Assembly (NCBI RefSeq): GCF_018449545.1
Contig: NZ_JAAVUR010000003.1
Location: forward strand, 124,001 to 188,000
DNA: 64,000 bases
DNA from: Granulicella sp. dw_53
Lineage (GTDB): Bacteria; Acidobacteriota; Terriglobia; Terriglobales; Acidobacteriaceae
Direction of reading: 5' to 3'
A program made the translations under genes and the position numbers. Below, one piece after another: positions 26,451-56,642 of this stretch (within the stretch, counting starts at the first letter, position 1; each line of letters starts with the position of its first letter). The notes beneath the pieces were generated by a model. It had not been told where the DNA came from, made no database searches, and saw nothing but the letters and a program-made list of their open reading frames with translations.

Positions 26451-26517
26451 AATTCCGAGAAGACGAAGACAAAGGACACCCGCGGCGCAGTGAAACTCCC
26501 TGCGCCGCACCACTTTC

Positions 26518-28170: not shown

Positions 28171-28175
28171 AGCGC

Positions 28176-32868: not shown

Positions 32869-32874
32869 TTCGCT

Positions 32875-41228: not shown

Positions 41229-41381
41229 GTGAAAAAACAGTTGCTGCTGAAAGCCTTCGTACCGCCTATTTTTTATCCGATCGTAACTTTGTGCCAAGGT
41301 GAGTGGCTCACGGCTGACGGTCGATTTGAACACCTATCTTCAGCGCCACGGCAGATGGCTGCGCGCTACGCCGAAATTTAA
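41229..41381 (+). CDS. Small ORF (50 residues) behind the sigma54 promoter
   Basis: GTG at 41229 is preceded by AAGGGAGCTAC, a good ribosome-binding site, 36 bases after the sigma54 promoter. The peptide starts basic and hydrophobic (VKKQLLLKAFVPPIFYPIVT) and has one Cys. It could be a precursor peptide, a leader peptide or a regulatory ORF; nothing in the sequence decides this. A hairpin follows its stop (ATCTCC...GGAGAT, 41386-41410). Confidence 0.45.
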   Translation: MKKQLLLKAFVPPIFYPIVTLCQGEWLTADGRFEHLSSAPRQMAARYAEI

Positions 41382-41523
41382 CCTCATCTCCCCTCTTCTG
41401 AGAGGAGATAGCCCCCAGCGTGTCGCGTGGAATGCGTCACTGCGCAACAGAAGGTTGTCTTGCGTGAGTTTGAAAGCAAGAGACGCAGGCCGACTCCGCA
41501 TTCATTCTAGAGAAGGATTGGGC

Positions 41524-42120
41524 ATGCATTGGAATTGTAATTCGAGCTACGAAGACATCGCGATAACGGAGTATCTGGATGCACTCTATGGCTATGCCAT
41601 GGTTCTGACCCGGAACCGGAGTGAGGCGGAGGATCTCGTCCAAGAGACCTGCGTTCGCGCTATCCGAGCTATGAAATATCTGAGAGCTGATAGCAATGTA
41701 AAGAGCTGGATGCTGACCATACTGCGCAACATCTGGCTCAATCAGCTACGCAAGCAACGTACTGCTCCGAATCTGATCGAGATGGATGCGGACGAGATTA
41801 CGGCAAACGTGGTCGTCGAGCCTTCCAAGGGTCCACATGCACTGTATGTAAGCAAGCTCGAGTCAGAGCAGGTGCGCGAGGCGATCCGAAAGCTTCCTGT
41901 GGACTTCCGCGAAGTCATCTTACTGCGCGAGTACGAAGAGTTGTCCTACCAGGAGATCGCCGGCGTTTTGAATTGCCCGGTTGGAACAGTGATGTCGCGC
42001 CTCGCACGAGCTCGCTCCAAACTGCGCACGCTGCTTACGGCTACGCTACAGATTCCAAATCCGCGCGTGATGAAGACGGATCGAGGAACCTATCTCGCCG
42101 CGGCGGCGTTACGATGCTGA
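41524..42120 (+). CDS. ECF sigma factor, copy 1
   Basis: A 198-residue sigma factor with no obvious anti-sigma partner. Region 2 is visible in LYGYAMVLTRNRSEAEDLVQ, region 4 in LPVDFREVILLREYEELSYQ and VLNCPVGTVMSRLARARS. The ATG at 41524 follows AAGGATT. It is nearly identical to the sigma factor at 42630 (same length, both ending in Arg-Cys), a recent duplication. It lies downstream of the sigma54 promoter and the small ORF, so a sigma54 to ECF cascade is possible. Confidence 0.9.
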   Translation: MHWNCNSSYEDIAITEYLDALYGYAMVLTRNRSEAEDLVQETCVRAIRAMKYLRADSNVKSWMLTILRNIWLNQLRKQRTAPNLIEMDADEITANVVVEPSKGPHALYVSKLESEQVREAIRKLPVDFREVILLREYEELSYQEIAGVLNCPVGTVMSRLARARSKLRTLLTATLQIPNPRVMKTDRGTYLAAAALRC

Positions 42121-42418
42121 TTTAGTCCGGTACGGAGGTTCCACGCTTCCAACGCCGCCACTCACGATATCCATGCGCTGTTCGCTTCCGTTGATATCGG
42201 CATGCTGTTTGAAGTGAGAGTGATTGAACATGAAGTGCACGACGTTATCCTGCGAGGCGGGACGGCGTTGTGCGTTTCGTCGTGCAGAGAGCTAACTTTT
42301 TAGTTTATAAGCTATTTCATGCGTAGCGACAATCCGATGACAATATCGGGACAATATTCTGACACATGGTGATCGCCCACGTAACACACTGATGGTGGGA
42401 GTTTGCTGAGCCTGAATG
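42121..42418. other. Intergenic region upstream of the radical SAM remnant
   Basis: Holds the first array of four 11-bp repeats (42328-42371, listed separately). No gene that I believe is present, although an open frame without a clear start crosses 42121-42305. Confidence 0.4.
42328..42371 (+). promoter_or_regulatory. Four 11-bp direct repeats (GACAAT-type), array 1
   Basis: GACAATCCGAT, GACAATATCGG, GACAATATTCT and GACACATGGTG follow one another without gaps, so the GACA unit recurs exactly every 11 bases. On the other strand this is TGTC every 11 bases, the spacing of PhoB/OmpR-type half-sites. An almost identical array lies at 43357-43400. Confidence 0.65.
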
Positions 42419-42620
42419 ATGCCGAAATCCATTTCTTCGCGAATGAAAACTGTATCCTTCTTCCCGCTTCTCTCCAGGGCAAAGACGACAGTGGAAGTCA
42501 TAGCCCTGACAGACCCAACCCCGGCAGTCGTACGGAACAGGAACAGAAGATAACTCTCGTCGATTCGACGATCGCGCAGATTCGAGGAGAAGCGTGCTCG
42601 AAGAGGTTCGCGATACAAAA
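42419..42620 (+). pseudogene. Decayed copy of the start of the first radical SAM gene
   Basis: The ATG at 42419 opens MPKSISSRMKTVSFFP, matching the start of the radical SAM gene at 43448 (MPKSIPSPKKVVFFFP). Homology resumes in another frame with ITLVDSTI (true gene VTLVDSTI) and then in the DNA GTGCTCGAAGAGGTTCGCGA. Frameshifts and an internal deletion make it non-functional. It runs directly into the second sigma gene, marking a tandem duplication boundary. Confidence 0.75.
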
Positions 42621-42629
42621 GGACTAGGC

Positions 42630-43226
42630 ATGTATTGGAATTGCGATTCGAGCTACGAAGACGTTGCGGTAACGGAGAATATGGATGCACTCTATGGCTA
42701 TGCCATGATGCTAACCCGGAACAGAAGTGAAGCAGAGGATCTAGTCCAAGAGACCTGTGTTCGTGCTATCCGGGCCATACGATATCTGCGGGCCGACAGT
42801 AACGTGAAGAGCTGGATGTTGACTATCTTGCGCAACACCTGGCTGAATCAGTTGCGGAAGCAACGTACCACTCCGAATCTCATCGAGTTGGATGCGGATG
42901 AGATCACAACGAACGTCGTGGTCGAGCCTTCCAAGGGTCCCCATGCGCTCTATGTGAGCAAGCTTGAGTCGGAGCAGGTGCGCGAAGCGATCCAACAGCT
43001 TCCCATGGACTTCCGCGAGGTGATCCTATTGCGCGAATATGAAGAGCTCTCCTACCAGGAGATCGCCCATGTTCTGGACTGCCCGGTTGGAACGGTGATG
43101 TCCAGGCTCGCTCGCGCGCGCGCCAAACTTCGAGCTTTGCTTATGGCCACGCTACAAATTTCGAGGCCACGCATGAAGGTCGACCGCGTATCGTACAGTT
43201 CCACCCCTGTGCCAGCACGGTGCTGA
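42630..43226 (+). CDS. ECF sigma factor, copy 2
   Basis: A 198-residue paralogue of the sigma factor at 41524, starting at ATG 42630 (AGGACTAGGC upstream). Regions 2 and 4 are intact (LYGYAMMLTRNRSEAEDLVQ, VLDCPVGTVMSRLARARA). Differences cluster in the N-terminal ten residues and the C-terminal tail. No anti-sigma gene follows. A strong hairpin terminator begins at its stop codon, so it does not read into the radical SAM operon by default. Confidence 0.9.
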   Translation: MYWNCDSSYEDVAVTENMDALYGYAMMLTRNRSEAEDLVQETCVRAIRAIRYLRADSNVKSWMLTILRNTWLNQLRKQRTTPNLIELDADEITTNVVVEPSKGPHALYVSKLESEQVREAIQQLPMDFREVILLREYEELSYQEIAHVLDCPVGTVMSRLARARAKLRALLMATLQISRPRMKVDRVSYSSTPVPARC

Positions 43227-43332: not shown

Positions 43333-43400
43333 CCCTCTCCCTTTGGGTGGGAGAGGGACAATCCGATGACAATATCGGGACAATACCCTGACACACGGCA
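43333..43400 (+). promoter_or_regulatory. Hairpin plus second array of 11-bp repeats before the radical SAM operon
   Basis: CCCTCTCCC/GGGAGAGGG forms a perfect 9-base stem (43333-43357). It is followed by GACAATCCGAT, GACAATATCGG, GACAATACCCT and GACACACGGCA (43357-43400), nearly identical to array 1. It sits 48 bases before the first radical SAM gene, so it is probably the control region of the biosynthetic operon. Confidence 0.6.
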
Positions 43401-43447
43401 ATGCTTAACAGCACACACTGAGATTGGGAGCGTGCTGAGTCCAACCG

Positions 43448-44971
43448 ATGCCGAAATCAATTCCTTCGCCAAAGAAAGTTGTATTTTTCTTCCCGTCCTT
43501 CGCGAGTTCTGAGGCAACGGCTCCGCTTGGTGTTCTTGCGGTCGCTACGCCCCTGATTCGTGCGGGATATCAAGTCACACTCGTGGACTCGACGATCACA
43601 CCGGATTTCAAGAAGCGGGTGCTCGAAGAGGTTCGCGATGCTATCTGCTTGGGAATCTCGCTCGTTACAGGTCCGATGATCCGCGAGACAGTCGAGATCG
43701 CACGGGCCGTGAAGGCATGGAATCCAGACTTCCCCATTATCCTCGGTGGATGGCATCCTTCCCTGCTTCCCGACCAGACGCTCCAGGCTGACTGCGTCGA
43801 CTACATCGTCCGCGGGCAGGGCGAAGATGCGCTGCTGGACTTAGTCCAACATCTGGAGACGAGGTCGGCGCCCGATCTCATTCCAGGGATCGGCTTCAAG
43901 CGTGGCGGCAAACTTATTCTTACGCCGGAGCGGCCGTTGAAGCCTTTGGCCGATATGCCACCGAAGGCGTATCACATTGCGGATTTCGATGCTTATGAAC
44001 GCGGCTGCGGAAAGCGCTGGGCTATGTATACTTCGAGCCTGGCGTGTCCGTTTAACTGCGCGTATTGTACGAACGCCGGAGTCTATGGGCGCAAGTGGAA
44101 CGCCCTGTCGCCAGAGCAGTTCGTCGAAGAGACTGTCGACCTGACGAGACGCTACCGACTCGAGATGCTGTGGGTGGTCGACGACAACTTCCTGGTCGAT
44201 CTCGATCGCGCCCGAGGTATTGCAGAAGGACTGGTGCGCGAGAACTCTCAGTTCAAGTGGAGCATCCAGGCGACGACGAATATGGTTGCGAGACTCTCTC
44301 CGGAGGATCTCAAGCTGCTTCGGCGCGCGGGTCTGCACCAGGTCTGCCAAGGAGTCGACTCAGGGTCGCCCAAGATCCTGCAACTGATGAACAAGACCTT
44401 CCAGGACTTTGACCAGATCTACGAGAGCGCTGCACGGTGCCTCTCGGCGGATATACGACCTTCGTTCAATATCATCTTCGCCTTTCCTGGCGAGGGTCCG
44501 AAGGAGCGCAGGGAGACGGTGAGCTTCATGATGGATGTTTGCCGACGTTTCCCTGGGGCAGAGTTCTGGACGAATATCTTCACGCCTTATCCGGGCTCTC
44601 CGATTATGGAGCGGGCGAAGGAGATTGGCATCGAAGTGCCGGCTACGCTGGAAGGATGGGCTGACTTCTTTCCGCGCTACACGACGCTGCCGTGGCTGAA
44701 GGGTGAGGAGCACAAGCGGCTTCAGGTAACGCGCGATTATCTTCGTATTGCATTCGACCGTATTCCTATCGCGGCCGATACTCGCGGGCCGATTACGCGA
44801 ATCGTTCAGAAGTCCATCTCATTGCCGGCTCGCTGGCGTCTTGACAACGATGTCTATAAGTATCCTGTCGAGATCTGGTTGAACAATAAGCTAAAGAAAC
44901 GAATGGCAGCGAGTAAGCCTGCCGTCGACGCCAAGAGACTCGCCAACACACCGGCGGAGGCAGCGTGCTGA
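43448..44971 (+). CDS. B12-binding-type radical SAM protein 1
   Basis: A 507-residue protein. Residues 1-140 form a Rossmann-like cobalamin-binding type domain (VVFFFP..., GISLVTGPMIRETV, IILGGWHPSLLPDQ). The radical SAM 4Fe-4S motif is C200, C204, C207 (CPFNCAYC), followed by the barrel with GVDSGSPKILQLMNK and FAFPGEG. The layout matches the BchE/HpnP-like class, whose members methylate or rearrange unactivated carbons. The C-terminal 90 residues are helical with no cluster-binding Cys set visible. It overlaps gene 2 by seven bases. Substrate unknown. Confidence 0.9.
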   Translation: MPKSIPSPKKVVFFFPSFASSEATAPLGVLAVATPLIRAGYQVTLVDSTITPDFKKRVLEEVRDAICLGISLVTGPMIRETVEIARAVKAWNPDFPIILGGWHPSLLPDQTLQADCVDYIVRGQGEDALLDLVQHLETRSAPDLIPGIGFKRGGKLILTPERPLKPLADMPPKAYHIADFDAYERGCGKRWAMYTSSLACPFNCAYCTNAGVYGRKWNALSPEQFVEETVDLTRRYRLEMLWVVDDNFLVDLDRARGIAEGLVRENSQFKWSIQATTNMVARLSPEDLKLLRRAGLHQVCQGVDSGSPKILQLMNKTFQDFDQIYESAARCLSADIRPSFNIIFAFPGEGPKERRETVSFMMDVCRRFPGAEFWTNIFTPYPGSPIMERAKEIGIEVPATLEGWADFFPRYTTLPWLKGEEHKRLQVTRDYLRIAFDRIPIAADTRGPITRIVQKSISLPARWRLDNDVYKYPVEIWLNNKLKKRMAASKPAVDAKRLANTPAEAAC

Positions 44972-46467
44972 CGCGGGGCAAGGTCGTCCTGTTCTATCCA
45001 CCGTACGATGGGCCTCCGCTTGGAGCGCCGCTTGCGCTGTTGTCGCTCGCGGGACCGTTGCGTGAAGCTAACTTCGAGGTAGTGTTGATCGATGCGGCGA
45101 TTGAGCCGAAGTATCTGACGCGGATTGAGGAAGAGTGCAAGACGGCGCTTTGCATCGGTATCTCCGTGCTGACCGGACCCATGATCCGAGGTGCTATTGA
45201 AGCGGCTCTCCATGTGAAGAGCCGTACACCAGAGGTCTGCGTCGTCTTTGGGGGATGGCATCCGACGCTTTGTCCTGAGTCGACGCTGCGAGAGCCTTAT
45301 GTCGATGTTGTGGTGCGTGGGCAAGGGGAGATTACTCTTGTCGAGCTTGCGAGCGCGCTCGCACAGAAGCGGCCTTTGGATTTAATTCCGGGCATCTCCT
45401 GGAAGAAGCAGGGGCGACTGATTGAGAACCTGGAGCGACGGGTTCAACCGATCGATACCTTCGCCCCACCCGCCTTCGATATGACGGACTTCGATGCGTA
45501 TGAGCGCATCTCCGGCAAGCGCGAACTGGCGTATGCCACAAGCGTGGGCTGTCCTTATGCCTGTAACTACTGCACCGATATGGTGGTGTATAAGCGGCGC
45601 TTCAACGCCTATGCTGCTGAGCATGTCGTCGAGGAGTTAGTCGGCCTGGTGGCGCGTTATCGCATCACCAATGTGGCTCTGCTGGACTCCAACTTCCCTG
45701 TTGATTTGCGTAGAGCGATCGCCATCGCGAAGGGTATACGTGATTCGGGTGTGAAGTTTACGTGGACCTTTCAGGCATCGACGGACTTCATCTGCCGAAT
45801 GAGCCAGGAGGAGGTTCAGTTGCTTGCCGATAGCGGGGTGAGCTACATGGGGTTTGGAACGGAGTCTACTTCGCAGGCCGTTCTTAAGATGATGAACAAG
45901 CGCCATCAACGTGTCGATGAGATGTACGAGACCGCTCGCAAGGCTAACCTCGCCGGCATACGCATCACCTTCAATCTCATTCTTGGCTACCCCGGAGAGA
46001 CTGAGGCTGACAGGCTTATTACCTTCCGGACGATGAGTGATATCGGGCGTCAGTTCAGTAATGTTCGCTTCTCACCGAATATCTTTACGCCTTATCCCGG
46101 TATTCCTATCTGGCCCCAGTTGCGCGATCTTGGTGTAATTGAACCGCAGACGCTGGAGGATTGGATGACGATGCCACTAGGGGCCAACCTGCTGCCTTGG
46201 CTCCGGGGGCGGGCACTCACGCGACTCAATCGCATGCTTGCTTATTTTCTGCTGCTCAACCAGGTGCGGCGGCATTCTAAGAAGACGGCCTTGGTGCAGA
46301 AGATCACTAGCTTTCTCGTTGAGACGCCGATCCAATGGCGACTGCGCTCCAGCTTGTTTTATTGTCCGTGGGAGATATGGCTTGCTGAGCTTTCTGAGCG
46401 CATCGTCAAGCGACGTTCTCTTGTTACTGGCCAGGAGTTACCTGTGGAGCCAGCTAATGCGTGCTGA
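44965..46467 (+). CDS. B12-binding-type radical SAM protein 2
   Basis: A 500-residue paralogue of protein 1, starting at GTG 44965 inside the end of that gene. The B12-type domain has GISVLTGPMIRGAIEAAL and VFGGWHPTLCPESTL. The 4Fe-4S cysteines are C196, C200, C203 (CPYACNYC), with FGTESTSQAVLKMMNK and LGYPGET in the barrel. Close similarity to protein 1 suggests duplication and action on the same or sequential intermediates. The C-terminus again ends in Ala-Cys. Confidence 0.9.
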   Translation: MLTRGKVVLFYPPYDGPPLGAPLALLSLAGPLREANFEVVLIDAAIEPKYLTRIEEECKTALCIGISVLTGPMIRGAIEAALHVKSRTPEVCVVFGGWHPTLCPESTLREPYVDVVVRGQGEITLVELASALAQKRPLDLIPGISWKKQGRLIENLERRVQPIDTFAPPAFDMTDFDAYERISGKRELAYATSVGCPYACNYCTDMVVYKRRFNAYAAEHVVEELVGLVARYRITNVALLDSNFPVDLRRAIAIAKGIRDSGVKFTWTFQASTDFICRMSQEEVQLLADSGVSYMGFGTESTSQAVLKMMNKRHQRVDEMYETARKANLAGIRITFNLILGYPGETEADRLITFRTMSDIGRQFSNVRFSPNIFTPYPGIPIWPQLRDLGVIEPQTLEDWMTMPLGANLLPWLRGRALTRLNRMLAYFLLLNQVRRHSKKTALVQKITSFLVETPIQWRLRSSLFYCPWEIWLAELSERIVKRRSLVTGQELPVEPANAC

Positions 46468-46490
46468 TCATTTTTGCCTAGAGGTAGTCC

Positions 46491-47990
46491 ATGGCTGATG
46501 TACTGCTAACACATTCCAACCATCTCGCCTATGATGCGAAGCAATTGCGGAAGATGCAGCCGTATCCTCCGCTGGGCACGCTCTATGCGGCAACGGCGCT
46601 CCGCGCGGCGGGCATCTCTGTCGCGGTCTACGATACGACTTTCAATAAGCCTCTTCCGGGCTTCCTTGAGGCATTGACAGAACACCAGCCGAAGATTGTC
46701 GTCATATACGAGGACGACTTCAATTTTGTAACCAAGATGTGTCTGCTGCATATGCGGGAGTTGGCAAACGAGCTCTCTACGATAGCCCACGCTTCGGGAA
46801 TTGCCGTGGTGGTTCATGGGTCGGATGCTACCGATCATCCACAGGAGTATTTGGATAATGGAGCCGATTTTGTTCTCAATGGTGAAGCGGAACAGACCTT
46901 GCAGGATCTTTGCCGTTCGCTTTTGCAGGATGGGCGAGTCGAAGTAGAGGCTGTTCCTGGACTCGTGCGTTACTCAGCGGCCGATGGCAGTCTGGAAAAA
47001 CTATTGCCAGCGCCTAAGAATCCTTCGTGGGCCGCCCTGCCGCGGGTCGAGAGAGGGCTGATCGATCTTGAACCGTATCGACGGTCCTGGACGGAAGCGC
47101 ATGGTTATTTTTCGACGAACGTCGTTTCGAGCCGTGGGTGTCCCTATGGTTGCAATTGGTGTGCGAAGCCGATCTCTGGTAATCGATTCCATCTGCGTGC
47201 TCCTGAGGAAGTAGCGGCGGAGATGCACGAGTTGAAGACGCTCTTCGGGGTGCAGCATATCTGGTTTGGCGACGATGTCTTTGCGTTGGATCGGCACTGG
47301 ATAGAGCAGTTCGCGAACGCTGTTGAATCTTATGGCGAGGTTGTTCCCTTTAAGATTCAGTCTCGTGCCGACTTAATGAGCGAGGCGACTGTTGCTTCTC
47401 TGAAGCGGGCAGGCTGCGCTGAGATATGGATGGGCGTGGAGTCGGGCTCGCAGGTGATCCTCGATGCCATGAACAAAGGGCTGAAGCTCTCTACGGTTCA
47501 TGTCGCTCGGGAGAGACTTGCGAAGGCTGGCATACGGGCTTGTTACTTTCTTCAGTTTGGTTACCCGGGTGAAGGGTGGGACGAGATCTGCGAGACGGTG
47601 CAGCTAGTGCGGGATACGAGGCCGGATGATATTGGGGTGTCTCTCTCCTATCCCCTGCCGGGTACCGGCTTCTTCGAGCGTGTGCAAGCGCAGTTGGGGA
47701 TAAAACGGAATTGGGTTGATAGCGATGATCTCTGCACGATGCATATCGCCAGTTACACAGATAGTTTTTATCACGCTCTTCGGGATGCGCTGCATGCTGA
47801 GGTAGCGGGATGGCATGCGCCGGCTGATCCGTTTGACGCATCCATAGGCGAATCGTTATGGATGCGTGTGCATGAGATGGAACCGTTGAGCAGGAACGTC
47901 AATGTGCTTTCTTTACCTACCGCTCCCGCTGGGGAGGTGCGAGGCGCATTTGTGCCGCTCCAGGAGCTTGTGGTTGAGAGGAGATCCTGA
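46491..47990 (+). CDS. B12-binding-type radical SAM protein 3
   Basis: A 499-residue protein of a second subgroup (with protein 4), opening ADVLLTHSN and YPPLGTLYAATALRAAGISV. The B12-type domain is more diverged (VVVHGSDATDHPQEYLDNGA). The 4Fe-4S cysteines are C217, C221, C224 (CPYGCNWC), with MGVESGSQVILDAMNKG and FGYPGEG following. A 23-base gap separates it from protein 2; its stop overlaps the start of protein 4. Confidence 0.9.
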   Translation: MADVLLTHSNHLAYDAKQLRKMQPYPPLGTLYAATALRAAGISVAVYDTTFNKPLPGFLEALTEHQPKIVVIYEDDFNFVTKMCLLHMRELANELSTIAHASGIAVVVHGSDATDHPQEYLDNGADFVLNGEAEQTLQDLCRSLLQDGRVEVEAVPGLVRYSAADGSLEKLLPAPKNPSWAALPRVERGLIDLEPYRRSWTEAHGYFSTNVVSSRGCPYGCNWCAKPISGNRFHLRAPEEVAAEMHELKTLFGVQHIWFGDDVFALDRHWIEQFANAVESYGEVVPFKIQSRADLMSEATVASLKRAGCAEIWMGVESGSQVILDAMNKGLKLSTVHVARERLAKAGIRACYFLQFGYPGEGWDEICETVQLVRDTRPDDIGVSLSYPLPGTGFFERVQAQLGIKRNWVDSDDLCTMHIASYTDSFYHALRDALHAEVAGWHAPADPFDASIGESLWMRVHEMEPLSRNVNVLSLPTAPAGEVRGAFVPLQELVVERRS

Positions 47991-49396
47991 TGCCCGACCT
48001 CTTACTTACGCACGGATATTTTCTCTACGAAGATCCCAAAGAGATGCAGATCATGAAGCCTTATGCACCTTTGGGCATTCTGTATCTCTGTTCGCACCTA
48101 CGGAAACAGGGGTTCGATGTTGAGGTCTTTGATACTACTTTCTCCAGCCGTAATGCGCTCTTCCACCATCTTCAGACAGAGACGCCGACTGCGCTTGGCA
48201 TCTATGCGAACCTGATGACTCGGAGCAATGTTGTAGAGATTATTAAGGTAGCGCGAGAAGCAGGTTGGCGAGTTATCGTGGGTGGGCCGGAGCCTGGTGC
48301 TTATGCGCAAGAGTTTCTGGAGTCGGGTGCGGATTTTGTCGTCTTCGGCGAAGGCGAGTCCACGATGCAGGAGTTGCTGACTGCCTTTCGCGACGGCTGC
48401 GATGGCACAGGCGATGGATGGAAGGCGAAGATTGCCGGTACGGCCTATCTCGATCAAGAGGGAGTGTTTCACCAGAATCTCCCGCGCACGCAGATTGCAG
48501 ATCTAGATGCGCAGCCGTGGCCTGCACGCGAGGCTATCGATTTGCATCGGTATGTCAATACGTGGAGGACGCATCATCAGCAAGGTTCGGTGAACTTCAT
48601 CACGGCACGAGGATGTCCCTACAAGTGCCGTTGGTGTAGCCATCAGGTCTACGGGCAGACACATCGCCGCCGCGATCCTATCAAGGTGGTGGACGAGCTG
48701 GAGTGGTTGCTGACGGAGTATACCCCCGATATTGCCTGGGTATCGGACGACGTCTTCACGATCAATCATGAATGGATACGGAAGTATGCTGGGGAGATGC
48801 GACGACGCGGCCTGCATATTCCTTTTGAGTGCATCTCGCGCGCTGACCGCTTGAATGAAGAGATGCTCGATCTGCTGGCGGAGCTGGGTTGCTTCCGAAT
48901 TTGGATCGGGTCTGAGAGTGGTTCGCAACGACTGCTCGATTCGATGGATCGCGGTGTGAAGGTGGAGCAGGTGCAGAGGGCTGTTGAGATGAGCCGGGCA
49001 CGTAAGATCCAGAGCGGGATGTTTTTGATGTGGGGTTACGAAGGTGAAGAGATGGAGGACATTGAGGCTACTATCCGTCACGTCAGCAAGGCGAAGCCCG
49101 ATATCTTCTTTACGACGGTCTCCTATCCGATCAAGGGCACTCCTTATTATCAGCAGATCCAAAGCAAGCTGGTGCAGTTGAAGCCATGGGCGGAGACGTC
49201 TGATCGGGAGATCAAGATCGCTGGGCGGCATTCGCGGGCCTACTATGCGCATGCCGATAAGCTGCTTCGCGACGAGGTTCAACTGGCAAAGCTTCGTGAG
49301 GTGGAGACGGACTCAACCCTTCTCGAAGAGCTGAGCATGAGCATTCAGGCTTCACGCGAGGGACTTGTTACGACACAGAACGAGGTCGAGGCATGA
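47990..49396 (+). CDS. B12-binding-type radical SAM protein 4
   Basis: A 468-residue protein related to protein 3 (PDLLLTHGYFLYEDPKEM, YAPLGILYLCSHLRKQGFDV). The B12-type domain contains VIVGGPEPGAYAQEFLESGA. The 4Fe-4S cysteines are C209, C213, C216 (CPYKCRWC), followed by IGSESGSQRLLDSMDRG. The N-terminal DTTF element after the second strand is shared with protein 3. Its end overlaps the methyltransferase start by ATGA, so translation is coupled. Confidence 0.9.
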   Translation: MPDLLLTHGYFLYEDPKEMQIMKPYAPLGILYLCSHLRKQGFDVEVFDTTFSSRNALFHHLQTETPTALGIYANLMTRSNVVEIIKVAREAGWRVIVGGPEPGAYAQEFLESGADFVVFGEGESTMQELLTAFRDGCDGTGDGWKAKIAGTAYLDQEGVFHQNLPRTQIADLDAQPWPAREAIDLHRYVNTWRTHHQQGSVNFITARGCPYKCRWCSHQVYGQTHRRRDPIKVVDELEWLLTEYTPDIAWVSDDVFTINHEWIRKYAGEMRRRGLHIPFECISRADRLNEEMLDLLAELGCFRIWIGSESGSQRLLDSMDRGVKVEQVQRAVEMSRARKIQSGMFLMWGYEGEEMEDIEATIRHVSKAKPDIFFTTVSYPIKGTPYYQQIQSKLVQLKPWAETSDREIKIAGRHSRAYYAHADKLLRDEVQLAKLREVETDSTLLEELSMSIQASREGLVTTQNEVEA

Positions 49397-50229
49397 GTAC
49401 GAGCAGAGCAGCGCTTCCTCTCGGAGATGTTCCCGGATCGGCCGCTGGCGCGGCCTTCGATCGTATTGCCGTGGACTACGATCGCGTCTTTACCGATTCG
49501 CTCATCGGTCGGGCACAACGGGAAGCGGTATGGAAGGTCCTCCTGAGCACTTTCCATAGGAATGACAAGGTTCTCGAACTTAATTGCGGAACAGGCGAGG
49601 ATGCTCTGTTTCTCGCCGGTAACGGCATCTCCGTCTTTGCGTGTGATGCTTCGCGGGAGATGATCGCCAGGGCAGAACAGCGTCTGCGACACGAGCCGCA
49701 GCAGTCTTCCGTGGTCTTCCGTCAGTTGCCTACGGAGTTCCTTGGGGAACTTTCAGGAATGCAATTCGATGGGGCTTTTTCGAACTTCTCTGGATTGAAC
49801 TGCACAGACGACCTGGGCGCTGTCGCATCGTCTTTGGCGAGTCTTGTAAGACCGAATGGCCGCGTGGTTCTATGTCTCTCTACTCGTTATAGCCTGATCG
49901 AGATCTTCTACTATCTTGCTCTGGGACAGTGGAAGAAGGCATCGAGACGATGGAAGGGATATAGCGAAGCTAAGCTCGATGGCGCGAAGTTTACGGTGTA
50001 TTATCCGACCGTTCGCCAGATCCGGCGTTATTTTCGCGATGATTTTCGTCTGTACTCCTGCACGGGAATTGGAGTGGCGGTGCCCCCTTCTTATTTGGAG
50101 ATGTGGGCCCGAAAGCACTCTTTTCTTTTTGGTTTGCTTCGACGCCTGGAAGGATTCTTTTCCACGCTGCCCATCTTTCGCAGTACCGGCGATCATGTTC
50201 TGCTTTGCTTCGAGAGGATACCCCGATGA
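49393..50229 (+). CDS. Class I SAM-dependent methyltransferase
   Basis: A 278-residue protein with the Rossmann methyltransferase core: motif I VLELNCGTGEDALFLA, acidic residue in VFACDASREMIARAEQ, and motif IV-V region FSNFSGLNCTDDLGAVASSL. A C-terminal helical extension (about residues 165-278) probably shapes the substrate pocket. It starts inside the end of radical SAM gene 4 and its stop overlaps the next methyltransferase start. Methyl acceptor unknown. Confidence 0.88.
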   Translation: MSTSRAALPLGDVPGSAAGAAFDRIAVDYDRVFTDSLIGRAQREAVWKVLLSTFHRNDKVLELNCGTGEDALFLAGNGISVFACDASREMIARAEQRLRHEPQQSSVVFRQLPTEFLGELSGMQFDGAFSNFSGLNCTDDLGAVASSLASLVRPNGRVVLCLSTRYSLIEIFYYLALGQWKKASRRWKGYSEAKLDGAKFTVYYPTVRQIRRYFRDDFRLYSCTGIGVAVPPSYLEMWARKHSFLFGLLRRLEGFFSTLPIFRSTGDHVLLCFERIPR

Positions 50230-51230
50230 TGGTGACGCAGAGGGATGAGATCGATACCGTCGAAGGGACGCGGGAGGGTGAGAGCGTCACGCTGCTGTGT
50301 TGGCGTTGTGGCGCGCCTTCCATCGAGATGACCCCGGAGACGCGCGCTGGCTCCGGCGAACGCGTATGCCTTGGCTGCATGGCTGTAACGAAGTACAAAG
50401 AGGGGATCTGGCAGGCGCTCTCTCCGCAACAGATCGAGCGCTTTCAGCGTTTCGTCGCAGAGTATGAGTTTATTCGCTCCGCCGAAGGCCGAGGAAGCGA
50501 TAAGTCAGACTACTACCTCAGCCTGCCCTACAAAGATATCTCTGGCCGTAATAGCGACCAATGGAAGATACGAGCCTGCACCTTCGGGTCGATCGTAAAG
50601 CACATCGTTTCGCCGCTGGCTAAAGCTCGCAGACGTTCGCTCAGGATCCTCGACCTTGGCGCAGGCAACGGTTGGATGAGTTATAGGTTGTCCCTTATGG
50701 GACACCAACCCATTGCGGTGGATCTATTAAGCAACGATCAGGATGGACTTGGTGCCGCTATCCACTTCAGCTCCCAGGTCGAACCCCTATTCCCTCGAGT
50801 TCAAGCTGAACTCGACCAGCTTCCATTTCCATCGCCCATCTTCGACCTTGTGATCTTCAATGCATCGTTCCATTACTCGCAAGACTATCAACGTACGTTA
50901 GCGGAGGCTCTTCGCTGCACACGCTCCGGTGGCGGTGTGGTGATTGCAGATACGCCGTGGTACGCACGAGAAGAGAGTGGGATAAGAATGGTGGAAGAGA
51001 AGCATAAACACTTCGCATCAACGTACGGGTTCTCATCAAACTCGATCTCCAGCCAGGAGTACATTACGCCAGAACGGCTGAATCAATTGCAAGAGACGTT
51101 CAAGCTGGAGTGGCGCATGATCAAGCCTTTCTATGGGATTCAGTGGTCGCTTCGACCGGTTCGGGCAAAGCTCGAGGGGCGGCGACCACCGTCGGAGTTC
51201 CGTATCTATACGACGTGGGCCGGCCAATGA
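50226..51230 (+). CDS. Methyltransferase with N-terminal zinc ribbon
   Basis: A 334-residue protein from the ATG at 50226, which overlaps the previous stop. The N-terminus has two CxxC pairs (LLCWRCGAPS and VCLGCMAV), a probable zinc ribbon. The class I methyltransferase core follows: RILDLGAGNGWMSYRLSLMG, AVDLLSNDQDGLGAA and FDLVIFNASFHYSQDY. The ribbon may bind a partner or a carrier-bound substrate. It overlaps radical SAM gene 5 by ATGA. Confidence 0.85.
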   Translation: MMVTQRDEIDTVEGTREGESVTLLCWRCGAPSIEMTPETRAGSGERVCLGCMAVTKYKEGIWQALSPQQIERFQRFVAEYEFIRSAEGRGSDKSDYYLSLPYKDISGRNSDQWKIRACTFGSIVKHIVSPLAKARRRSLRILDLGAGNGWMSYRLSLMGHQPIAVDLLSNDQDGLGAAIHFSSQVEPLFPRVQAELDQLPFPSPIFDLVIFNASFHYSQDYQRTLAEALRCTRSGGGVVIADTPWYAREESGIRMVEEKHKHFASTYGFSSNSISSQEYITPERLNQLQETFKLEWRMIKPFYGIQWSLRPVRAKLEGRRPPSEFRIYTTWAGQ

Positions 51231-52696
51231 TCATTCTCTACCATCCACGCGCTACGCGGCCTCGGAACCGAAGGCTACCGCTTGCTGTGCTCGCTCTCGC
51301 TGCTGCACTTGAAGGACGAGAGGAGTACGAGATTGTCGATGGAAACCTCGAAGACGATCCGACGGCTCGCATCCTGCAACTTATCGATCAGCACAAGGTT
51401 GAATTGCTGGGTGTCTCGGCTATGCCAGGACCACAGATGGTGGCAGCGATGGAGACATCGCGTGAGGTTCGCCGCCTTCATCCTAAGGTACCGATCTGCT
51501 GGGGTGGATATTTCGCATCTATTTATCCGGACGCGGCGCTCAATGCCCGCTATGTAGACTTCGTAGCTCGTGGACAGGGGGAGGATACCCTCCTTGAACT
51601 TCTCGATGCGTTGCGCGGCAATCGTCCTCTGGACTCGGTGCTGGGCATCTCTTATAAAGATATGTTCGGGCTGCGACACGACAATGGCGAGCGTCCCATG
51701 AAGGGACCGGATGAGTTTCCGTGGTCTCCGTTTCATCGCCTTCCGGTTGAAAAATATTTGCGGCCTTCTTTCTTTGGCAAGCGAACCGCTGTTCACCACG
51801 CGAGCATCGGTTGTCCCTTCAACTGCAGCTTCTGCGGTGTTCATGCGGCGTATGGCAATAAGGAGAAGATGGAGTCTCCGGAGCGCACGGTCGCCATCTT
51901 GACTCACCTTGTGGAACGATATGGCGCGGACTCGGTTCAGTTCTACGATATGAACTTCTTCCTACGCGAGGATCATGCGCGGGAGCTCTGCGACCGTATG
52001 ACGCATTTGAAGCTTCGATGGTGGTGCGAAGCTCGCGTGGACATTATGTCCAAATACTCGGATGAGACCTTTGCCGCGATCAAGCGGGCGGGGTGCGCGA
52101 TGATCTTCTTCGGTGCGGAGTCTGGTTCTGATTGGGTGCTCGAAGAGATGCAAAAGGGCATCACCACGGAGCAGACGCTCGAGGTGGCGCGGCGTACAAG
52201 GAAGTTCGGCATCATTCCTGAGTTCTCTTTTGTGATCGGCAATCCCAACGACCCGGACCGCGATACGCGTGAGACGCTGCGATTTATCCGCAAGATCAAA
52301 CGCATCAATCCGGATTCAGAGATCATCATCCAGCACTACACTCCGACGCCACAGCCGCACAACGCGGGTGGAGAGATGTACGGGAAGATCGAAGTTCCAT
52401 TTCCAGATTCACCGGCTGGTTGGGCCACGAGCGACTGGATGAACTTTACTCTGCGCATCGACACGAATGCTCCGTGGCTCAAACGCCGGACGAAAAAGCT
52501 AATCGATAACTTCGAGATCGTTGTAGGGTCGCGCTGGCCAACGGTGCAGGATATTCGTGCACCACGTTGGAGCCGCGTATTTCTACAGGTTCTCAGCGCG
52601 TGGCGCTATGCCTTTCACTTCTACCGATTTCCTTTCGAGCTTCATCTCGCGAACCAGTTCATCGCTTTGCGTAAACCAAAACGGGAGAGCCTGTGA
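51227..52696 (+). CDS. B12-binding-type radical SAM protein 5
   Basis: A 489-residue protein from the ATG at 51227, closer to proteins 1 and 2 than to 3 and 4 (GVSAMPGPQMVAAMETSREV, CWGGYFASIYPDAALNARYV, VARGQGEDTLLELLDAL). The 4Fe-4S cysteines are C196, C200, C203 (CPFNCSFC), followed by FGAESGSDWVLEEMQKG and VIGNPNDPDRDT. Overlaps the preceding and following genes by four bases each. An upstream frame extension lies inside the methyltransferase gene and is not needed. Confidence 0.9.
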   Translation: MIILYHPRATRPRNRRLPLAVLALAAALEGREEYEIVDGNLEDDPTARILQLIDQHKVELLGVSAMPGPQMVAAMETSREVRRLHPKVPICWGGYFASIYPDAALNARYVDFVARGQGEDTLLELLDALRGNRPLDSVLGISYKDMFGLRHDNGERPMKGPDEFPWSPFHRLPVEKYLRPSFFGKRTAVHHASIGCPFNCSFCGVHAAYGNKEKMESPERTVAILTHLVERYGADSVQFYDMNFFLREDHARELCDRMTHLKLRWWCEARVDIMSKYSDETFAAIKRAGCAMIFFGAESGSDWVLEEMQKGITTEQTLEVARRTRKFGIIPEFSFVIGNPNDPDRDTRETLRFIRKIKRINPDSEIIIQHYTPTPQPHNAGGEMYGKIEVPFPDSPAGWATSDWMNFTLRIDTNAPWLKRRTKKLIDNFEIVVGSRWPTVQDIRAPRWSRVFLQVLSAWRYAFHFYRFPFELHLANQFIALRKPKRESL

Positions 52697-54651
52697 AGAT
52701 GCCCGAGACAGTTGCGATTTCCTCTCAAACGCAGCCGGATAGCTCTGTCTTCGACCGCTGGGCGGAGGTTTACGATGCGCAGTCCAATCCCCTGCTCATG
52801 CTGGAGGAGCGGAGCGTCTTGCCACTGCTGCCTGAGTTAGAGGGCAACGATGTTCTGGATGCGGGGTGTGGAACCGGCCGTTGGCTGGTGAAGTTGGAAA
52901 GGTTCCGTCCTGCTTCTCTTACTGGAACGGATTGCTCTGCCGCCATGCTGGAGCATGCTCGAGCGAAGGTCCAGCCTACGACAAAGCTCGAGCGTGGAGA
53001 GTGCTCGACGTTGCCCGGGGAGAACGCCTCTAAGAGTTTTGTGCTGGCTTCTTTCGTGCTCAGTTATCTGGACGATCTGAAGGGATTCGCTCATGAGTGT
53101 GCTCGTGTCCTTCGATCGGATGGGTCGTTAGTTATCTCCGATATGCATCCCGCGACCGCATCGGAGCGAGGCTGGACACGAAGCTTCTCTGTAGATGGTG
53201 CCAGGGTAGAGATCGCTACGTACCCTCGTTCTCTTGAGGAGATTGTCTCCATATTTGAAGAGAGTGGATTCGAGGTTCAGACTTTATTAGAGCCATCCTT
53301 TTCTGGGCCGGAGCGGACCCTCTTCGAGGATGCTGGAAAACTTGAGGAGTATGAAGGGCTCGTTGGCGTTGCCGCTATATACATCTTGAAGTTGCGGAAA
53401 CGGCAGTCGCAGCCATTCACAAGCTCTTCTCGTTCGAATATGCAACTGACCAACGCACGTATTGGTACGGGAGCCAGTACGTGGAAGGATGGGGTACTTC
53501 GGATCGAGGATGGCTACATCATCTCCGTTCGTGAAAGCGCTGATAGTGCAGTACCGACACTTGATCTGAATGGCTATGTGCTTCTTCCTGGCTTGATCAA
53601 TGCACACGAACATTTGGAGTTTGGGCTGTTTCCAAGGCTCGGACGCGGTGCAGAGGCGCCTTGCTATCGAAACTCGACGGAGTGGGCTCAGGAGATTCAT
53701 GAGATCCACGCAGATGTCATCGAGCGATATAGGCAAATTCCTAAAGCTATTCATCTGTGGTGGGGGGCAATCCGTAATCTCCTTTGTGGCGTAACGACGG
53801 TTTGTCATCACAACCCTTTGCACGAGGAACTCACTCTTTCCGATTTTCCTGTTCATGTTGTCTCCCGCTTCGGCTGGTCGCACTCTTTGTCGTTCGATCC
53901 GCATCTTGTCGAAAGATTTCGGTGGACGCCGAAGGATCAACCCTTTCTTCTCCATGCCGCGGAGGGGGTCGATGAAGCGAGTCGAGGCGAGATCTCCACG
54001 CTTGACGCGATGGAGGTACTGGATGAACGTACCGTTCTCATCCATGGATTAGCGTGCGCGGCAGAGGAGATCGCTCTGCTGAACCGGCGTGGAGTATCGC
54101 TGGTTGTTTGTCCTACGTCTAACCGATTTCTCTTTGCGGAGGCTCCTACACGCGATTTGCTTACTTCGGTCGAGCGATTGGCACTTGGTAGCGACTCCCC
54201 GATTACAGCGGCGGGTGATCTGCTCGATGAGGCTCGGTACCTTCATACAGAGGTTGGCCTTGATCCTGCCGCGGTCTACGACATGGTGACTTCCGGCCCT
54301 GCGAAGATGCTTCACTTAAAAGAGAACCAAGGACAGATTGCAGAGTTCGGAGTGGCCGATCTGATTGCTGTGCGTGGCGATCATGACACTCCTGCCGTGG
54401 CGCTTGTGGGGCTCACCTTTGTGGACGTTGAGTTGGTTGTGATCTCAGGTCGGGTGCAGATGGTCTCTCCTCCTCTCTATGAACGCCTGCCACAGGAGCT
54501 CCGCTCCGGCATGCAACTTCTTGAAGTAGCCGGCCAGCAACGCTGGATTCGAGCTCCGCTGGAGATGTTGTTTGAGGCGGCGGAGGAGGTTCTCGGCCAA
54601 GGCAAACTCTTGCTTGCTGAGAGGGAGGTGCGTTATCTCGGTACTCTATGA
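52693..54651 (+). CDS. Methyltransferase-amidohydrolase fusion
   Basis: A 652-residue bifunctional protein starting at GTG 52693. Residues 1-240 are a class I methyltransferase (VLDAGCGTGRWLVKLERF, GTDCSAAMLEHARAKV, VLRSDGSLVISDMHP). After a Ser-rich linker, residues 250-652 are a metal-dependent amidohydrolase of the chlorohydrolase/deaminase subgroup: PGLINAHEHLEFG, FLLHAAEG, IHGLACAAEEIALLNRRG, CPTSNRFLF and GSDSPIT supply the metal ligands. I know of no described enzyme with this fusion. The two activities probably act on one intermediate. Confidence 0.88.
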   Translation: MKMPETVAISSQTQPDSSVFDRWAEVYDAQSNPLLMLEERSVLPLLPELEGNDVLDAGCGTGRWLVKLERFRPASLTGTDCSAAMLEHARAKVQPTTKLERGECSTLPGENASKSFVLASFVLSYLDDLKGFAHECARVLRSDGSLVISDMHPATASERGWTRSFSVDGARVEIATYPRSLEEIVSIFEESGFEVQTLLEPSFSGPERTLFEDAGKLEEYEGLVGVAAIYILKLRKRQSQPFTSSSRSNMQLTNARIGTGASTWKDGVLRIEDGYIISVRESADSAVPTLDLNGYVLLPGLINAHEHLEFGLFPRLGRGAEAPCYRNSTEWAQEIHEIHADVIERYRQIPKAIHLWWGAIRNLLCGVTTVCHHNPLHEELTLSDFPVHVVSRFGWSHSLSFDPHLVERFRWTPKDQPFLLHAAEGVDEASRGEISTLDAMEVLDERTVLIHGLACAAEEIALLNRRGVSLVVCPTSNRFLFAEAPTRDLLTSVERLALGSDSPITAAGDLLDEARYLHTEVGLDPAAVYDMVTSGPAKMLHLKENQGQIAEFGVADLIAVRGDHDTPAVALVGLTFVDVELVVISGRVQMVSPPLYERLPQELRSGMQLLEVAGQQRWIRAPLEMLFEAAEEVLGQGKLLLAEREVRYLGTL

Positions 54652-55663
54652 CATTCAACCCGCGCCGACTAATCATCTCGAGCGATCACGCATCGTCGCG
54701 CTTCCGATCCTCCTGATTAACGTTCATAGTCAGTGCAATTGCCGTTGCGTGATGTGCGACATCTGGAAGCGGAAGGATGGGCGAGAGTTTCATGCTGCCG
54801 ATCTTGAACGGCATCGCGAGTCAATACGAGCGCTCGGGGTGAAGCACGTTGTGCTTTCGGGCGGAGAACCTCTGCTGAATCGGGAGTTGGAGGCGATTTG
54901 TGGTTTCTTCCGCGAACTGAATCTTCGTATTACGCTGCTTACGACAGGGCTCCTGCTGGAGAAGCGTGCAGAGCTGGTGACTGCGGGTTTCGACGATATC
55001 ATCATCTCGATTGATGGCCCGGCGGAGGTCCATGACAGGATTCGACGTGTCCGCGGGGCCTTCCAAACGATTGGAAGAGGGATAGCAGCGGTACGGAGAC
55101 GCCGGCCCGAGATTCCGATATCGTGCCGGACCACGGTACAAAAGTCGAACCATGCTGATCTGCGCGCCACGGTCGCCGCGGCAAGGTCGCTCGGGCTTGA
55201 TAGCATCTCCTTTCTCGCTGCGGATATTTCGTCGGCGGCCTTCAACCGGGAGGAGCGTTGGGCGCCTGAACGTCAGGATGAGATCACTCTTACCAGAGCT
55301 GAGTTAATCGCCCTGGAAGAAGAGGTCGAACTCTTGATTCGGATGCATCAGGACGATATTGATAGCGGTTTTATTGCTGAAAACAAAGCGAAGCTGCGAA
55401 GGATTGGCGATCGCTTTCGCGAGCATCTGGAAGGGATACCCCCCAAGGCCCCGATCTGCAATGCTCCTTGGGTCTCTGCGGTAATCGAAGTCGATGGGAG
55501 TGTTCGGCCTTGCTTCTTCCATCCTCCCGTCGGCAATGTGGATCGACAGACCTTGGAAGAAGCTGTTAATGGAGAGGCGGCTCTGAGCTTCCGCAGCCGC
55601 TTAAAGGTGGCCAGTAATCCTACCTGCCAGCGTTGTGTCTGCTCGCTGAACTACCAGTCGTGA
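54572..55663 (+). CDS. Radical SAM protein with SPASM-like C-terminus
   Basis: About 363 residues from TTG 54572 (GGAG upstream), overlapping the fusion gene by 80 bases; the true start may be later. The 4Fe-4S cysteines are C55, C59, C62 (CNCRCVMC), and LSGGEPLLNRELEAICGF and IIISIDGPAEVHDRIRR are barrel motifs. C-terminal cysteines (APICNAPWVSAVIEVDGS, RPCFFHPP, CQRCVCSL) form a SPASM/twitch-type auxiliary cluster region. It lacks the B12-binding domain. SPASM enzymes often modify peptides but also small molecules. Confidence 0.88.
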   Translation: MRRRRRFSAKANSCLLRGRCVISVLYDIQPAPTNHLERSRIVALPILLINVHSQCNCRCVMCDIWKRKDGREFHAADLERHRESIRALGVKHVVLSGGEPLLNRELEAICGFFRELNLRITLLTTGLLLEKRAELVTAGFDDIIISIDGPAEVHDRIRRVRGAFQTIGRGIAAVRRRRPEIPISCRTTVQKSNHADLRATVAAARSLGLDSISFLAADISSAAFNREERWAPERQDEITLTRAELIALEEEVELLIRMHQDDIDSGFIAENKAKLRRIGDRFREHLEGIPPKAPICNAPWVSAVIEVDGSVRPCFFHPPVGNVDRQTLEEAVNGEAALSFRSRLKVASNPTCQRCVCSLNYQS

Positions 55664-55943: not shown

Positions 55944-56078
55944 CGGGCTTAATTCAACTTCGCTGGGAGAGTTGAAGAGCGTATCCGTGTGATCCCTACG
56001 GGATGTCTGCGGAAGCTGCCTCCTTATTATTCCCGCTCGGCCTCCGGTCCTTTTGCCACTGGATGCAAGGAGCGATGT

Positions 56079-56642
56079 ATGCAGCAGCGCCAACCCGCTT
56101 CCGTGACTCTTGTGCTCGGCGGCGTTCGCAGTGGCAAGAGCCGCTTTGCACAACGAATTGCCGAGCGTTCGCTTCGCGTCACATTTGTCGCGACAGCAGA
56201 ACGACGTGACGATGCCGAGATGCACGCCAAGATTGAGCGGCATCGTGCCGAACGACCTGAGACCTGGGCGACGATAGAGGAGCCGCTCCAACTGGCACAG
56301 ACCATTCAGGCCGCGAGTCTCGACTGCGATGTCCTCCTGATTGACTGCCTTACGCTATTCGCATCGAACCTTCTCGAGGCTCATGGCGAAGACTCCTTGC
56401 GGCTTCAAGCTCAAATCGATGAGCTTTGTTTAGCGCTTCAATCGGCGCAGTGTTCCGTCGTACTTGTGTCTAACGAGGTGGGAAGCGGCGTTGTTCCAGC
56501 CTATGAGCTGGGCCGACGATTCCGGGATCTCGTTGGAGAGATTAACCAGCGGGTCGCTTCGGTTGCGGATACAGTGCTCTTGATGGTCGCAGGACTTCCC
56601 TTCCCGCTCAAGGGCTCCGTTCCCGCGGAGGTTCGGCCGTGA
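56079..56642 (+). CDS. cobU: Adenosylcobinamide kinase/adenosylcobinamide-phosphate guanylyltransferase
   Basis: A 187-residue bifunctional enzyme that phosphorylates and then guanylylates adenosylcobinamide. The P-loop GGVRSGKSRFAQ lies near the N-terminus, followed by the guanylylation-site region ERHRAERPETWATIEEP, then DVLLIDCLTL and VSNEVGSGVVPAYELGRRF. The ATG at 56079 has AAGGAG seven bases upstream; an ATG at 55989 lies in the leader. First gene of the riboswitch-controlled operon; it overlaps the next gene by GTGA. Confidence 0.95.
   Translation: MQQRQPASVTLVLGGVRSGKSRFAQRIAERSLRVTFVATAERRDDAEMHAKIERHRAERPETWATIEEPLQLAQTIQAASLDCDVLLIDCLTLFASNLLEAHGEDSLRLQAQIDELCLALQSAQCSVVLVSNEVGSGVVPAYELGRRFRDLVGEINQRVASVADTVLLMVAGLPFPLKGSVPAEVRP

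What the first reader, a model, noticed from the sequence alone, without database searches (positions are those of the whole stretch)
43448..55663. Nine-gene operon with five B12-type radical SAM proteins: an uncharacterised biosynthetic cluster
Nine genes overlap or nearly touch: five radical SAM proteins with cobalamin-binding-like N-termini (two subgroups: 1, 2, 5 and 3, 4), two methyltransferases, a methyltransferase-amidohydrolase fusion and a SPASM-type radical SAM protein. All CxxxCxxC motifs are intact. Members of this class methylate or rearrange unactivated carbons (BchE, HpnP). So many in one operon implies a heavily modified lipid, pigment, nucleoside or peptide. There is no polyketide, peptide synthetase or terpene gene, so the scaffold comes from elsewhere. 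I cannot name a described pathway with this set.
Basis: partly seen in the sequence, partly recalled or inferred. Interest (0 to 1): 0.88.

Follow-up and report, generated by a model that had tools for sequence, protein, structure and literature searches.

The report
B12-type radical-enzyme cluster, exopolysaccharide regulon
Nine overlapping genes, kept in the same order in many Acidobacteriota, encode five vitamin-B12-type radical SAM proteins with methyl-transferring partners; they matched no described pathway in our searches and likely make an unidentified, heavily methylated small molecule together with the cell's surface sugar coat, with whose genes they share a predicted control switch.

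Summary
Nine co-oriented, overlapping genes (43448-55663) encode five proteins with both a B12-binding and a radical SAM domain, three methyltransferase domains, a TRZ/ATZ-type amidohydrolase (fused to one of them) and a SPASM radical SAM protein. No NCBIfam cut-off is met in the rows shown. Gene order is conserved in 20 of 20 complete same-genus loci (gene 2 is missing in 8 and moved in 1) and, in parts, across the phylum.

(1) A reduced form of the locus keeps genes 3, 5, 6 and the amidohydrolase. In 7 of 8 same-genus cases it carries a diverged, extra GTP cyclohydrolase II; the same paralogue sits beside four full-size clusters. (2) An 11-bp-period repeat, TGACAA(N5)x3, precedes gene 1 in 20 of 23 full-size clusters of the family. 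It also precedes exopolysaccharide, HprK-like and NTP_transf_5 genes, including on other contigs of the window's own genome.

Best reading (part inference): the cluster is the biosynthetic arm of an exopolysaccharide regulon and makes a multiply methylated, probably GTP-derived ring compound. The main rival is that it modifies a sugar of the polysaccharide itself. Substrate, product and B12 binding are all untested.

The parts
43356..43394 (+). Operator-like direct repeat, four GACA-type units at 11-bp spacing, 54-92 nt upstream of gene 1
   Evidence: Score 16/18; similar repeat upstream of g1 in 20 of 23 family-f1 loci, this one included; whole-genome matches
43448..44971 (+). Gene 1: B12-binding/radical SAM protein (507 aa)
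   Evidence: PF02310 65 bits, PF04055 76 bits; CPFNCAYC
44965..46467 (+). Gene 2: B12-binding/radical SAM protein (500 aa), paralogue of gene 1, missing in some relatives
   Evidence: 39% to g1; absent in 8 and moved in 1 of 20 complete same-genus loci
46491..47990 (+). Gene 3: B12-binding/radical SAM protein (499 aa), the radical SAM member of the conserved core
   Evidence: present in full and reduced loci and distant loci; fold nearest AprD4 and OxsB
47990..49396 (+). Gene 4: B12-binding/radical SAM protein (468 aa), 34% to gene 3
   Evidence: present beside gene 3 in most distant loci
49393..50229 (+). Gene 5: class-I SAM methyltransferase (278 aa), core
   Evidence: PF13649/PF08242; kept in reduced loci
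50226..51230 (+). Gene 6: SAM methyltransferase with N-terminal Cys-rich segment, core; ATG at 50226
   Evidence: PF08241; kept in reduced loci; Cys-rich segment read from the translation
51227..52696 (+). Gene 7: B12-binding/radical SAM protein; ATG at 51227
   Evidence: CPFNCSFC
52693..54651 (+). Gene 8: methyltransferase domain (about aa 20-235) fused to TRZ/ATZ-type amidohydrolase (about aa 247-640)
54614..55663 (+). Gene 9: radical SAM/SPASM protein; start uncertain (TTG at 54614 or 54572)
   Evidence: PF04055 + PF13186; best PDB match cytosylglucuronate decarboxylase, E 4.5e-14; start region read
42594..43226 (+). Sigma-70-family (ECF-like) gene just upstream; membership in the system uncertain
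   Evidence: PF04542 + PF08281; tandem copy at 41513-42070, 82% over 558 nt
42325..42466 (+). Remnant copy of the operator repeat and the start of gene 1, apparently left by a tandem duplication of sigma gene + gene 1 head
   Evidence: 77% over 142 nt to 43354-43495; operator sites 42327/42338

Best explanation
Nine overlapping genes encode five B12-binding-type radical SAM proteins, three methyltransferase domains, a TRZ/ATZ-family amidohydrolase and a SPASM radical SAM protein, share an operator-like repeat with exopolysaccharide genes, and likely make a multiply methylated small molecule, on a ring that would come from GTP, as the biosynthetic arm of that exopolysaccharide regulon. Proposed order (inferred): GTP cyclohydrolase II opens GTP to a diaminopyrimidinone; this is an extra, cluster-linked paralogue in relatives and would have to be the housekeeping enzyme in the window's genome. 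The amidohydrolase domain of gene 8 would deaminate the ring, and methyltransferases 5, 6 and 8M would add N- or O-methyl groups. Radical SAM proteins 3 and 4, then 1, 2 and 7, would methylate or rearrange unactivated carbons using B12 and SAM, and SPASM protein 9 would do one further radical step. The product would be exported or attached with the surface polysaccharide. Shown: domains, motifs, conserved order, the reduced core, the GTP cyclohydrolase II clade, and the shared repeat. Inferred: every chemical step, B12 binding, and the binding of the repeat by the OmpR/PhoB-type regulator next to the polysaccharide genes.
For: Domains and motifs. Order conserved. Reduced loci keep, of this set, genes 3, 5, 6 and the amidohydrolase and form a clade inside the family's full clusters (gene 3 tree, SH-aLRT 94, joint clade 91), so these four likely act together. 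An extra GTP cyclohydrolase II lies between genes 5 and 3 in 7 of 8 same-genus reduced loci, and about 2.4 kb upstream of gene 1 in four full clusters. The 11 extra copies form one clade (100/100) on a long branch apart from the housekeeping copies; the 9 aligned keep zinc Cys and EGRGIGL; none in 6 of 6 same-genus cluster-free genomes examined. The amidohydrolase keeps HxH, HxxE, His and Asp in 37 of 39 copies by strict pattern; the other two differ only in CPxSN. Its fold is nearest N-heterocycle deaminases. Repeat: >=15/18 upstream of g1 in 20 of 23 f1 loci (related, not independent) against 1.1% of random 250-nt stretches. In the window's 6.15-Mb genome, <=1 mismatch gives 9 matches against 0 for the reversed pattern: 4 overlapping ones in two arrays at this locus, 2 at the polysaccharide/HprK-like locus on contig 54, 1 before a Wzy_C gene on contig 1, 2 elsewhere. 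In 26 regions, 72 of 84 sites precede genes of this set. A Response_reg + Trans_reg_C regulator, 68% to that of relatives, lies beside the HprK-like gene on contig 54.
Against: GTP cyclohydrolase II is not in the window's cluster, nor at 16 of the 20 complete same-genus full clusters (14 of those genomes searched whole; 2 only in the fetched stretch). It is absent from reduced locus G016 and broken by an in-frame stop in G241. So it is either replaceable by the housekeeping enzyme or specific to one clade. Co-regulation does not prove one product. The amidohydrolase folds nearest adenosine/MTA/SAH-type deaminases and might only clear by-products. Two genomic matches of the repeat in G000 lie elsewhere; the polysaccharide-type locus of G055 stays under threshold. 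Outside family f1, 0 of 3 readable loci have the repeat upstream of gene 1. A polysaccharide locus of this kind also exists in cluster-free G036. Cluster-free genomes also carry the repeat: 20 matches in 9 genomes against 6 for the control. The consensus was read from the same loci that were then scored.
Confidence: 0.33

Rival explanations
1. The cluster modifies a sugar of the exopolysaccharide itself: the radical SAM proteins would deoxygenate, methylate or rearrange an activated sugar, as AprD4-type enzymes do with aminoglycosides.
Confidence: 0.28
2. Small-molecule pathway on a scaffold not from GTP; the amidohydrolase is a clearing enzyme that deaminates S-adenosylhomocysteine and 5'-deoxyadenosine, the inhibitory by-products of so many SAM enzymes.
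Against: The domain is kept in reduced loci with a single radical SAM protein of this set and is fused to a methyltransferase in the window. It leaves the extra GTP cyclohydrolase II unexplained.
Confidence: 0.2
3. Ribosomal peptide (RiPP) pathway: SPASM and B12 radical SAM proteins modify a small precursor.
For: SPASM protein present; sub-cut-off similarity to RiPP C-methyltransferase models; HprK-like and NTP_transf_5 families also occur with peptide systems (recalled).
Against: Within 1.5 kb of either end in 23 loci (window included) no small ORF is conserved beyond close relatives, apart from the antisense of gene 1's own start. No peptidase domain in the proteins scanned.
Confidence: 0.07
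4. Membrane-lipid, hopanoid or tetrapyrrole/corrinoid tailoring (BchE-, HpnR-, ladderane-type, or linked to the adjacent B12 genes).
For: Weak similarity to BchE, HpnJ and ladderane models; CobU, CbiA/GATase_3, DBI_PRT (CobT), CobS and His_Phos_1 genes follow the cluster in the window.
Against: All these scores are far below cut-off. hpnP/hpnR reported absent from all examined acidobacterial genomes but one (PMC5462960, passages). The cob genes gave no match in the flanks held of L006 and L007 (L008 ends too early to tell) or of the 31 loci (short flanks).
Confidence: 0.06

Closest known systems
B12-binding radical SAM enzymes AprD4, OxsB, TsrM, MgmA, CysS, TokK
   Different: 14-22% identity over the aligned part; five paralogues in one cluster; no NRPS/PKS domain in the nine proteins
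Toxoflavin/pseudoiodinine-type pathways (GTP cyclohydrolase II + deaminase + methyltransferases)
   Same: In the reduced loci: GTP cyclohydrolase II, a deaminase-family enzyme and two methyltransferases; psd gene list read in PMC9911603 (passages)
   Different: Deaminase is an amidohydrolase, not RibD-type; radical SAM proteins present; no sulphatase-modifying-factor-type or glyoxalase-type domain among the nine
TRZ/ATZ amidohydrolases (adenosine/MTA/SAH-type deaminases, isocytosine deaminase, atrazine chlorohydrolase, guanine deaminase)
   Different: 16-23% identity; fused to a methyltransferase
Cytosylglucuronate decarboxylase BlsE (gene 9)
   Same: Best PDB sequence match, E 4.5e-14
   Different: 62.9 bits against a cut-off of 400; only residues 28-157 align

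Membership tests
B12-binding radical SAM superfamily (PF02310 + PF04055) | Both domains above gathering score and CxxxCxxC | tested here: met
   Genes 1, 2, 3, 4, 7
B12-binding radical SAM superfamily (PF02310 + PF04055) | Actual cobalamin binding | not testable with these tools
   Domain match only; AprD4 has the fold but, as I recall, no cobalamin
BchE (TIGR02026) | Score above 481 bits | tested here: not met
   Best 162.3 (gene 4)
Hopanoid HpnR (TIGR04367) / HpnJ (TIGR03471) | Score above 650 / 577.6 bits | tested here: not met
   Best 99.2 and 112.8
Ladderane-type rSAM (TIGR04072) | Score above 360 bits | tested here: not met
   Best 126.5 (gene 4)
RiPP radical SAM system | Conserved precursor peptide beside the maturase | tested here: inconclusive
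   None conserved beyond close relatives in 1.5-kb flanks of 23 loci; a remote precursor is not excluded
GTP cyclohydrolase II-initiated pathway (toxoflavin/pseudoiodinine type) | GTP cyclohydrolase II in the cluster | tested here: inconclusive
   Not in the window; extra-copy clade in 7 of 8 same-genus reduced loci and beside 4 full clusters
GTP cyclohydrolase II-initiated pathway (toxoflavin/pseudoiodinine type) | RibD-type deaminase, sulphatase-modifying-factor-type and WD40 genes | tested here: not met
   No such Pfam domain in the nine proteins
TRZ/ATZ amidohydrolase (deaminase branch) | HxH, HxxE, His, Asp metal/catalytic residues | tested here: met
   37 of 39 by strict pattern; the other two differ only in CPxSN
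TRZ/ATZ amidohydrolase (deaminase branch) | Deaminase activity and substrate | not testable with these tools
   Fold alone
Member of the exopolysaccharide regulon | Same operator-like repeat before both sets in the same genome | tested here: met
   G000 contigs 23, 54 and 1; binding itself untested

The most novel reading that the evidence does not exclude
A new class of bacterial natural product: a GTP-derived, nucleoside- or pteridine-like molecule carrying several radical-installed methyl groups or ring changes, built by up to five B12 radical SAM enzymes in series, switched on with the exopolysaccharide and built into or secreted with the surface coat of soil Acidobacteriota.
Probability: 0.22. 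Interest if true: 0.85.

Novelty: new variant of a known kind. Interest (0 to 1): 0.63.

Why it matters
Acidobacteriota are common soil bacteria whose chemistry is little known (recalled). [quoted passage not shown] A reduced version with four of the genes gives a tractable entry point, the GTP cyclohydrolase II clade gives a concrete first substrate to test, and the operator-like repeat predicts when the cluster is expressed and what it works with.

Tried and rejected
Lipid, hopanoid, ladderane and bacteriochlorophyll assignments: curated cut-offs not met (25 best rows per protein shown for genes 2, 4, 8 and 9). RiPP: no small ORF conserved beyond close relatives beside the cluster. Link to the adjacent B12 genes: no match in the flanks held of L006 and L007 or of the 31 loci. 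The idea that NTP_transf_5/HprK-like genes are part of the cluster itself: the same polysaccharide-type locus occurs without the cluster in G036 and, in part (HprK-like, NTP_transf_5, cytochrome c, cupredoxin), in G026. Repeat-like sites lie within 4 kb of NTP_transf_5 in cluster-free G026, G010 and G015, but not in G036; this suggests that the repeat belongs to that locus and the cluster joined it. Plasmid search with gene 3: 120 records, all under 60% identity (rows listed 26-29%), no informative context. Paper searches found no description of this cluster in the titles and abstract starts listed (an open-licence library, most subscription journals missing; listings capped). In one search the methyltransferase half of gene 8 is not covered; it appears. 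The 8A tree does not resolve the sister of the reduced clade.
Full report
What is there. Nine + strand genes at 43448-55663. Genes 1, 2, 3, 4 and 7 carry PF02310 and PF04055 above gathering scores; 5 and 6 are class-I methyltransferases; 8 is methyltransferase plus amidohydrolase; 9 is radical SAM plus SPASM. No NCBIfam curated cut-off is reached in the rows shown for the nine. The window's genome has 8 PF02310 matches over cut-off, five of them in this cluster.

Conservation. Edaphobacter modestus (L006) has nine of nine genes in order at 65-93% identity; E. lichenicola (L007) lacks gene 2; a subdivision-3 MAG (L008) lacks 2 and 5, has 8M and 8A as separate ORFs, and its held stretch ends before gene 9. 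Gene 8 orthologues occur in 32 of 120 relatives (own genome included) at E <= 1e-40. Of the 31 others fetched: 21 same-genus full-size loci (one, L043, cut by a contig end), 8 same-genus reduced loci and 2 full-size loci of another family (f5), where gene 8 is two genes. Of the 20 complete same-genus full-size loci, 20 keep the order 1-3-4-5-6-7-8-9; gene 2 follows gene 1 in 11, sits between 8 and 9 in 1 and is absent in 8. Gene 3 relatives occur in 37 of 396 phylum genomes at E <= 1e-75. Of 20 neighbourhoods fetched (mapped), two in another genus of the family have full-size clusters without gene 6, one is a reduced locus, L162 and L163 in another family hold most of the set, and 11 of the other 15 have matches to 3, 4 and 5 with some of 1, 6, 7, 8 and 9. 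The protein database holds many more (2907 proteins at E <= 1e-20 for gene 8, 120 listed; at least 7994 at E <= 1e-60 for gene 3, capped).

The reduced form. Eight same-genus genomes have, at this locus, only genes 5, 3, 6 and the amidohydrolase of this set, behind an NTP_transf_5-type gene and followed by an MGT-type glycosyltransferase (Pfam run on L066 only). Genes 1, 4 and 7 were not sought elsewhere in those genomes. In the gene 3 tree the reduced loci form a clade (SH-aLRT 94) sister to L051-L057 (91) within the family's full-size clusters, so they look like a reduction; the 8A tree leaves the sister open. In 7 of the 8 (not G016) a GTP cyclohydrolase II gene lies between 5 and 3; G241, of another genus, has one interrupted by an in-frame stop. 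It is an extra copy: 8 of the 9 extra-copy genomes searched also have a separate copy at 57-64% identity (not the 74%-complete G019). The same extra copy is found about 2.4 kb upstream of gene 1 in four full-size clusters (L054-L057), and in none of six same-genus cluster-free genomes examined. The 11 extra copies form one clade (100/100, branch 0.94), and the 9 aligned keep the zinc cysteines and EGRGIGL. I take this as the best clue to the scaffold. It is indirect for the window, whose genome has only the housekeeping-type RibA and a RibBA-like gene.

The operator-like repeat. Comparing the window with itself showed that sigma gene plus gene 1 head is tandemly duplicated (41513-42070 with 42619-43176, 82%; 42325-42466 with 43354-43495, 77%), and that the duplicated part includes GACAAT-type units every 11 bp, 54-92 nt upstream of gene 1. 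A three-unit TGACAA score of at least 15 of 18 occurs within 250 nt upstream of gene 1 in 20 of 23 family-f1 loci (misses L039 13, L051 14, L052 13), in 0 of 3 readable loci outside the family, and in 1.1% of 4000 random 250-nt stretches of the same regions. The loci are related and the consensus came from them. In 26 regions 84 sites were found; 72 lie within 400 nt upstream of (or up to 120 nt inside the predicted start of) gene 1 (11), gene 3 of reduced loci (7), NTP_transf_5 F13 (10), HprK-like (11), the unassigned gene F16 (10), PhyH (8), the polysaccharide-export gene F9 (6), cupredoxin (5) or GT87 (4); 12 do not. In the whole window genome the pattern with at most one mismatch has 9 matches against 0 for the reversed control: four overlapping ones in two arrays at this locus (the remnant, and before gene 1), one about 320-340 nt upstream of the cupredoxin-cytochrome-NTP_transf_5-export run and one about 170-190 nt upstream of the HprK-like gene on contig 54, one about 160 nt upstream of a Wzy_C gene (60% identity to F24) on contig 1, one about 490 nt before a 68% copy of the window's 1968-aa kinase protein, and one in a two-component operon. 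Pfam confirms SLBB/Poly_export, Wzz, Polysacc_synt_3, WecG, GT87 and Wzy_C for the window genome's copies; the HprK-like protein is just under its cut-off (31.2 against 33.3). Over 29 further genomes, 20 cluster carriers have 135 matches (control 33) and 9 cluster-free ones 20 (control 6), overlapping matches counted. The 11-bp spacing is typical of OmpR/PhoB-type regulators (recalled); a Response_reg + Trans_reg_C protein, 68% identical to one found near the cluster in relatives, lies beside the HprK-like gene on contig 54. Binding is not shown.

Position near polysaccharide loci. NTP_transf_5 lies within 25 kb of the cluster or gene 3 relative in 30 of 52 genomes, expected 0.62 if placed at random. 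Many genomes are related, some contigs are short, and the window's genome is among the 22 misses.

Judgement. Shown: one conserved cluster, with four genes that stay together when the rest is missing, and a shared repeat with exopolysaccharide genes. Inferred: a GTP-derived, multiply methylated product. The sugar-modification rival is nearly as likely. Nothing in the listings seen describes this cluster, but that library omits most subscription papers.

Noticed in passing
41299-43226: Two tandem sigma-70-family (ECF-like) genes (82% over 558 nt) with a remnant of the gene 1 start between them; no such gene lies directly before gene 1 in the 31 loci (one 33% match further off in L062).
   Followed up: partly
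35163-41069: A 1968-aa protein with Pkinase, AAA_16, GAF, PAS and Sigma54_activat domains; a 68% copy on contig 53 has an operator-like site about 490 nt upstream.
   Followed up: partly
55989-60576: CobU, CbiA/GATase_3, DBI_PRT (CobT), CobS and His_Phos_1 genes follow the cluster directly; no match in the flanks held of L006 and L007.
   Followed up: partly
L179/L180 (G000:C54), about 18262-33420 of the joined stretch: Polysaccharide locus of the window genome: COX2-like cupredoxin, cytochrome c, NTP_transf_5, export (SLBB), Wzz, flippase-type, glycosyltransferases, WecG, GT87, HprK-like, response regulator; the combination with electron-transfer proteins is unexplained.
   Followed up: partly
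L066:14692-16803: GT87 membrane glycosyltransferase fused to a PD40 beta-propeller; an operator-like site precedes this family in four regions.
   Followed up: no
44962-44971 and 46458-46467: Genes 1 and 2 both end in ...AC with a C-terminal cysteine, as both sigma-like proteins end in ...RC; conservation in relatives not checked.
   Followed up: no
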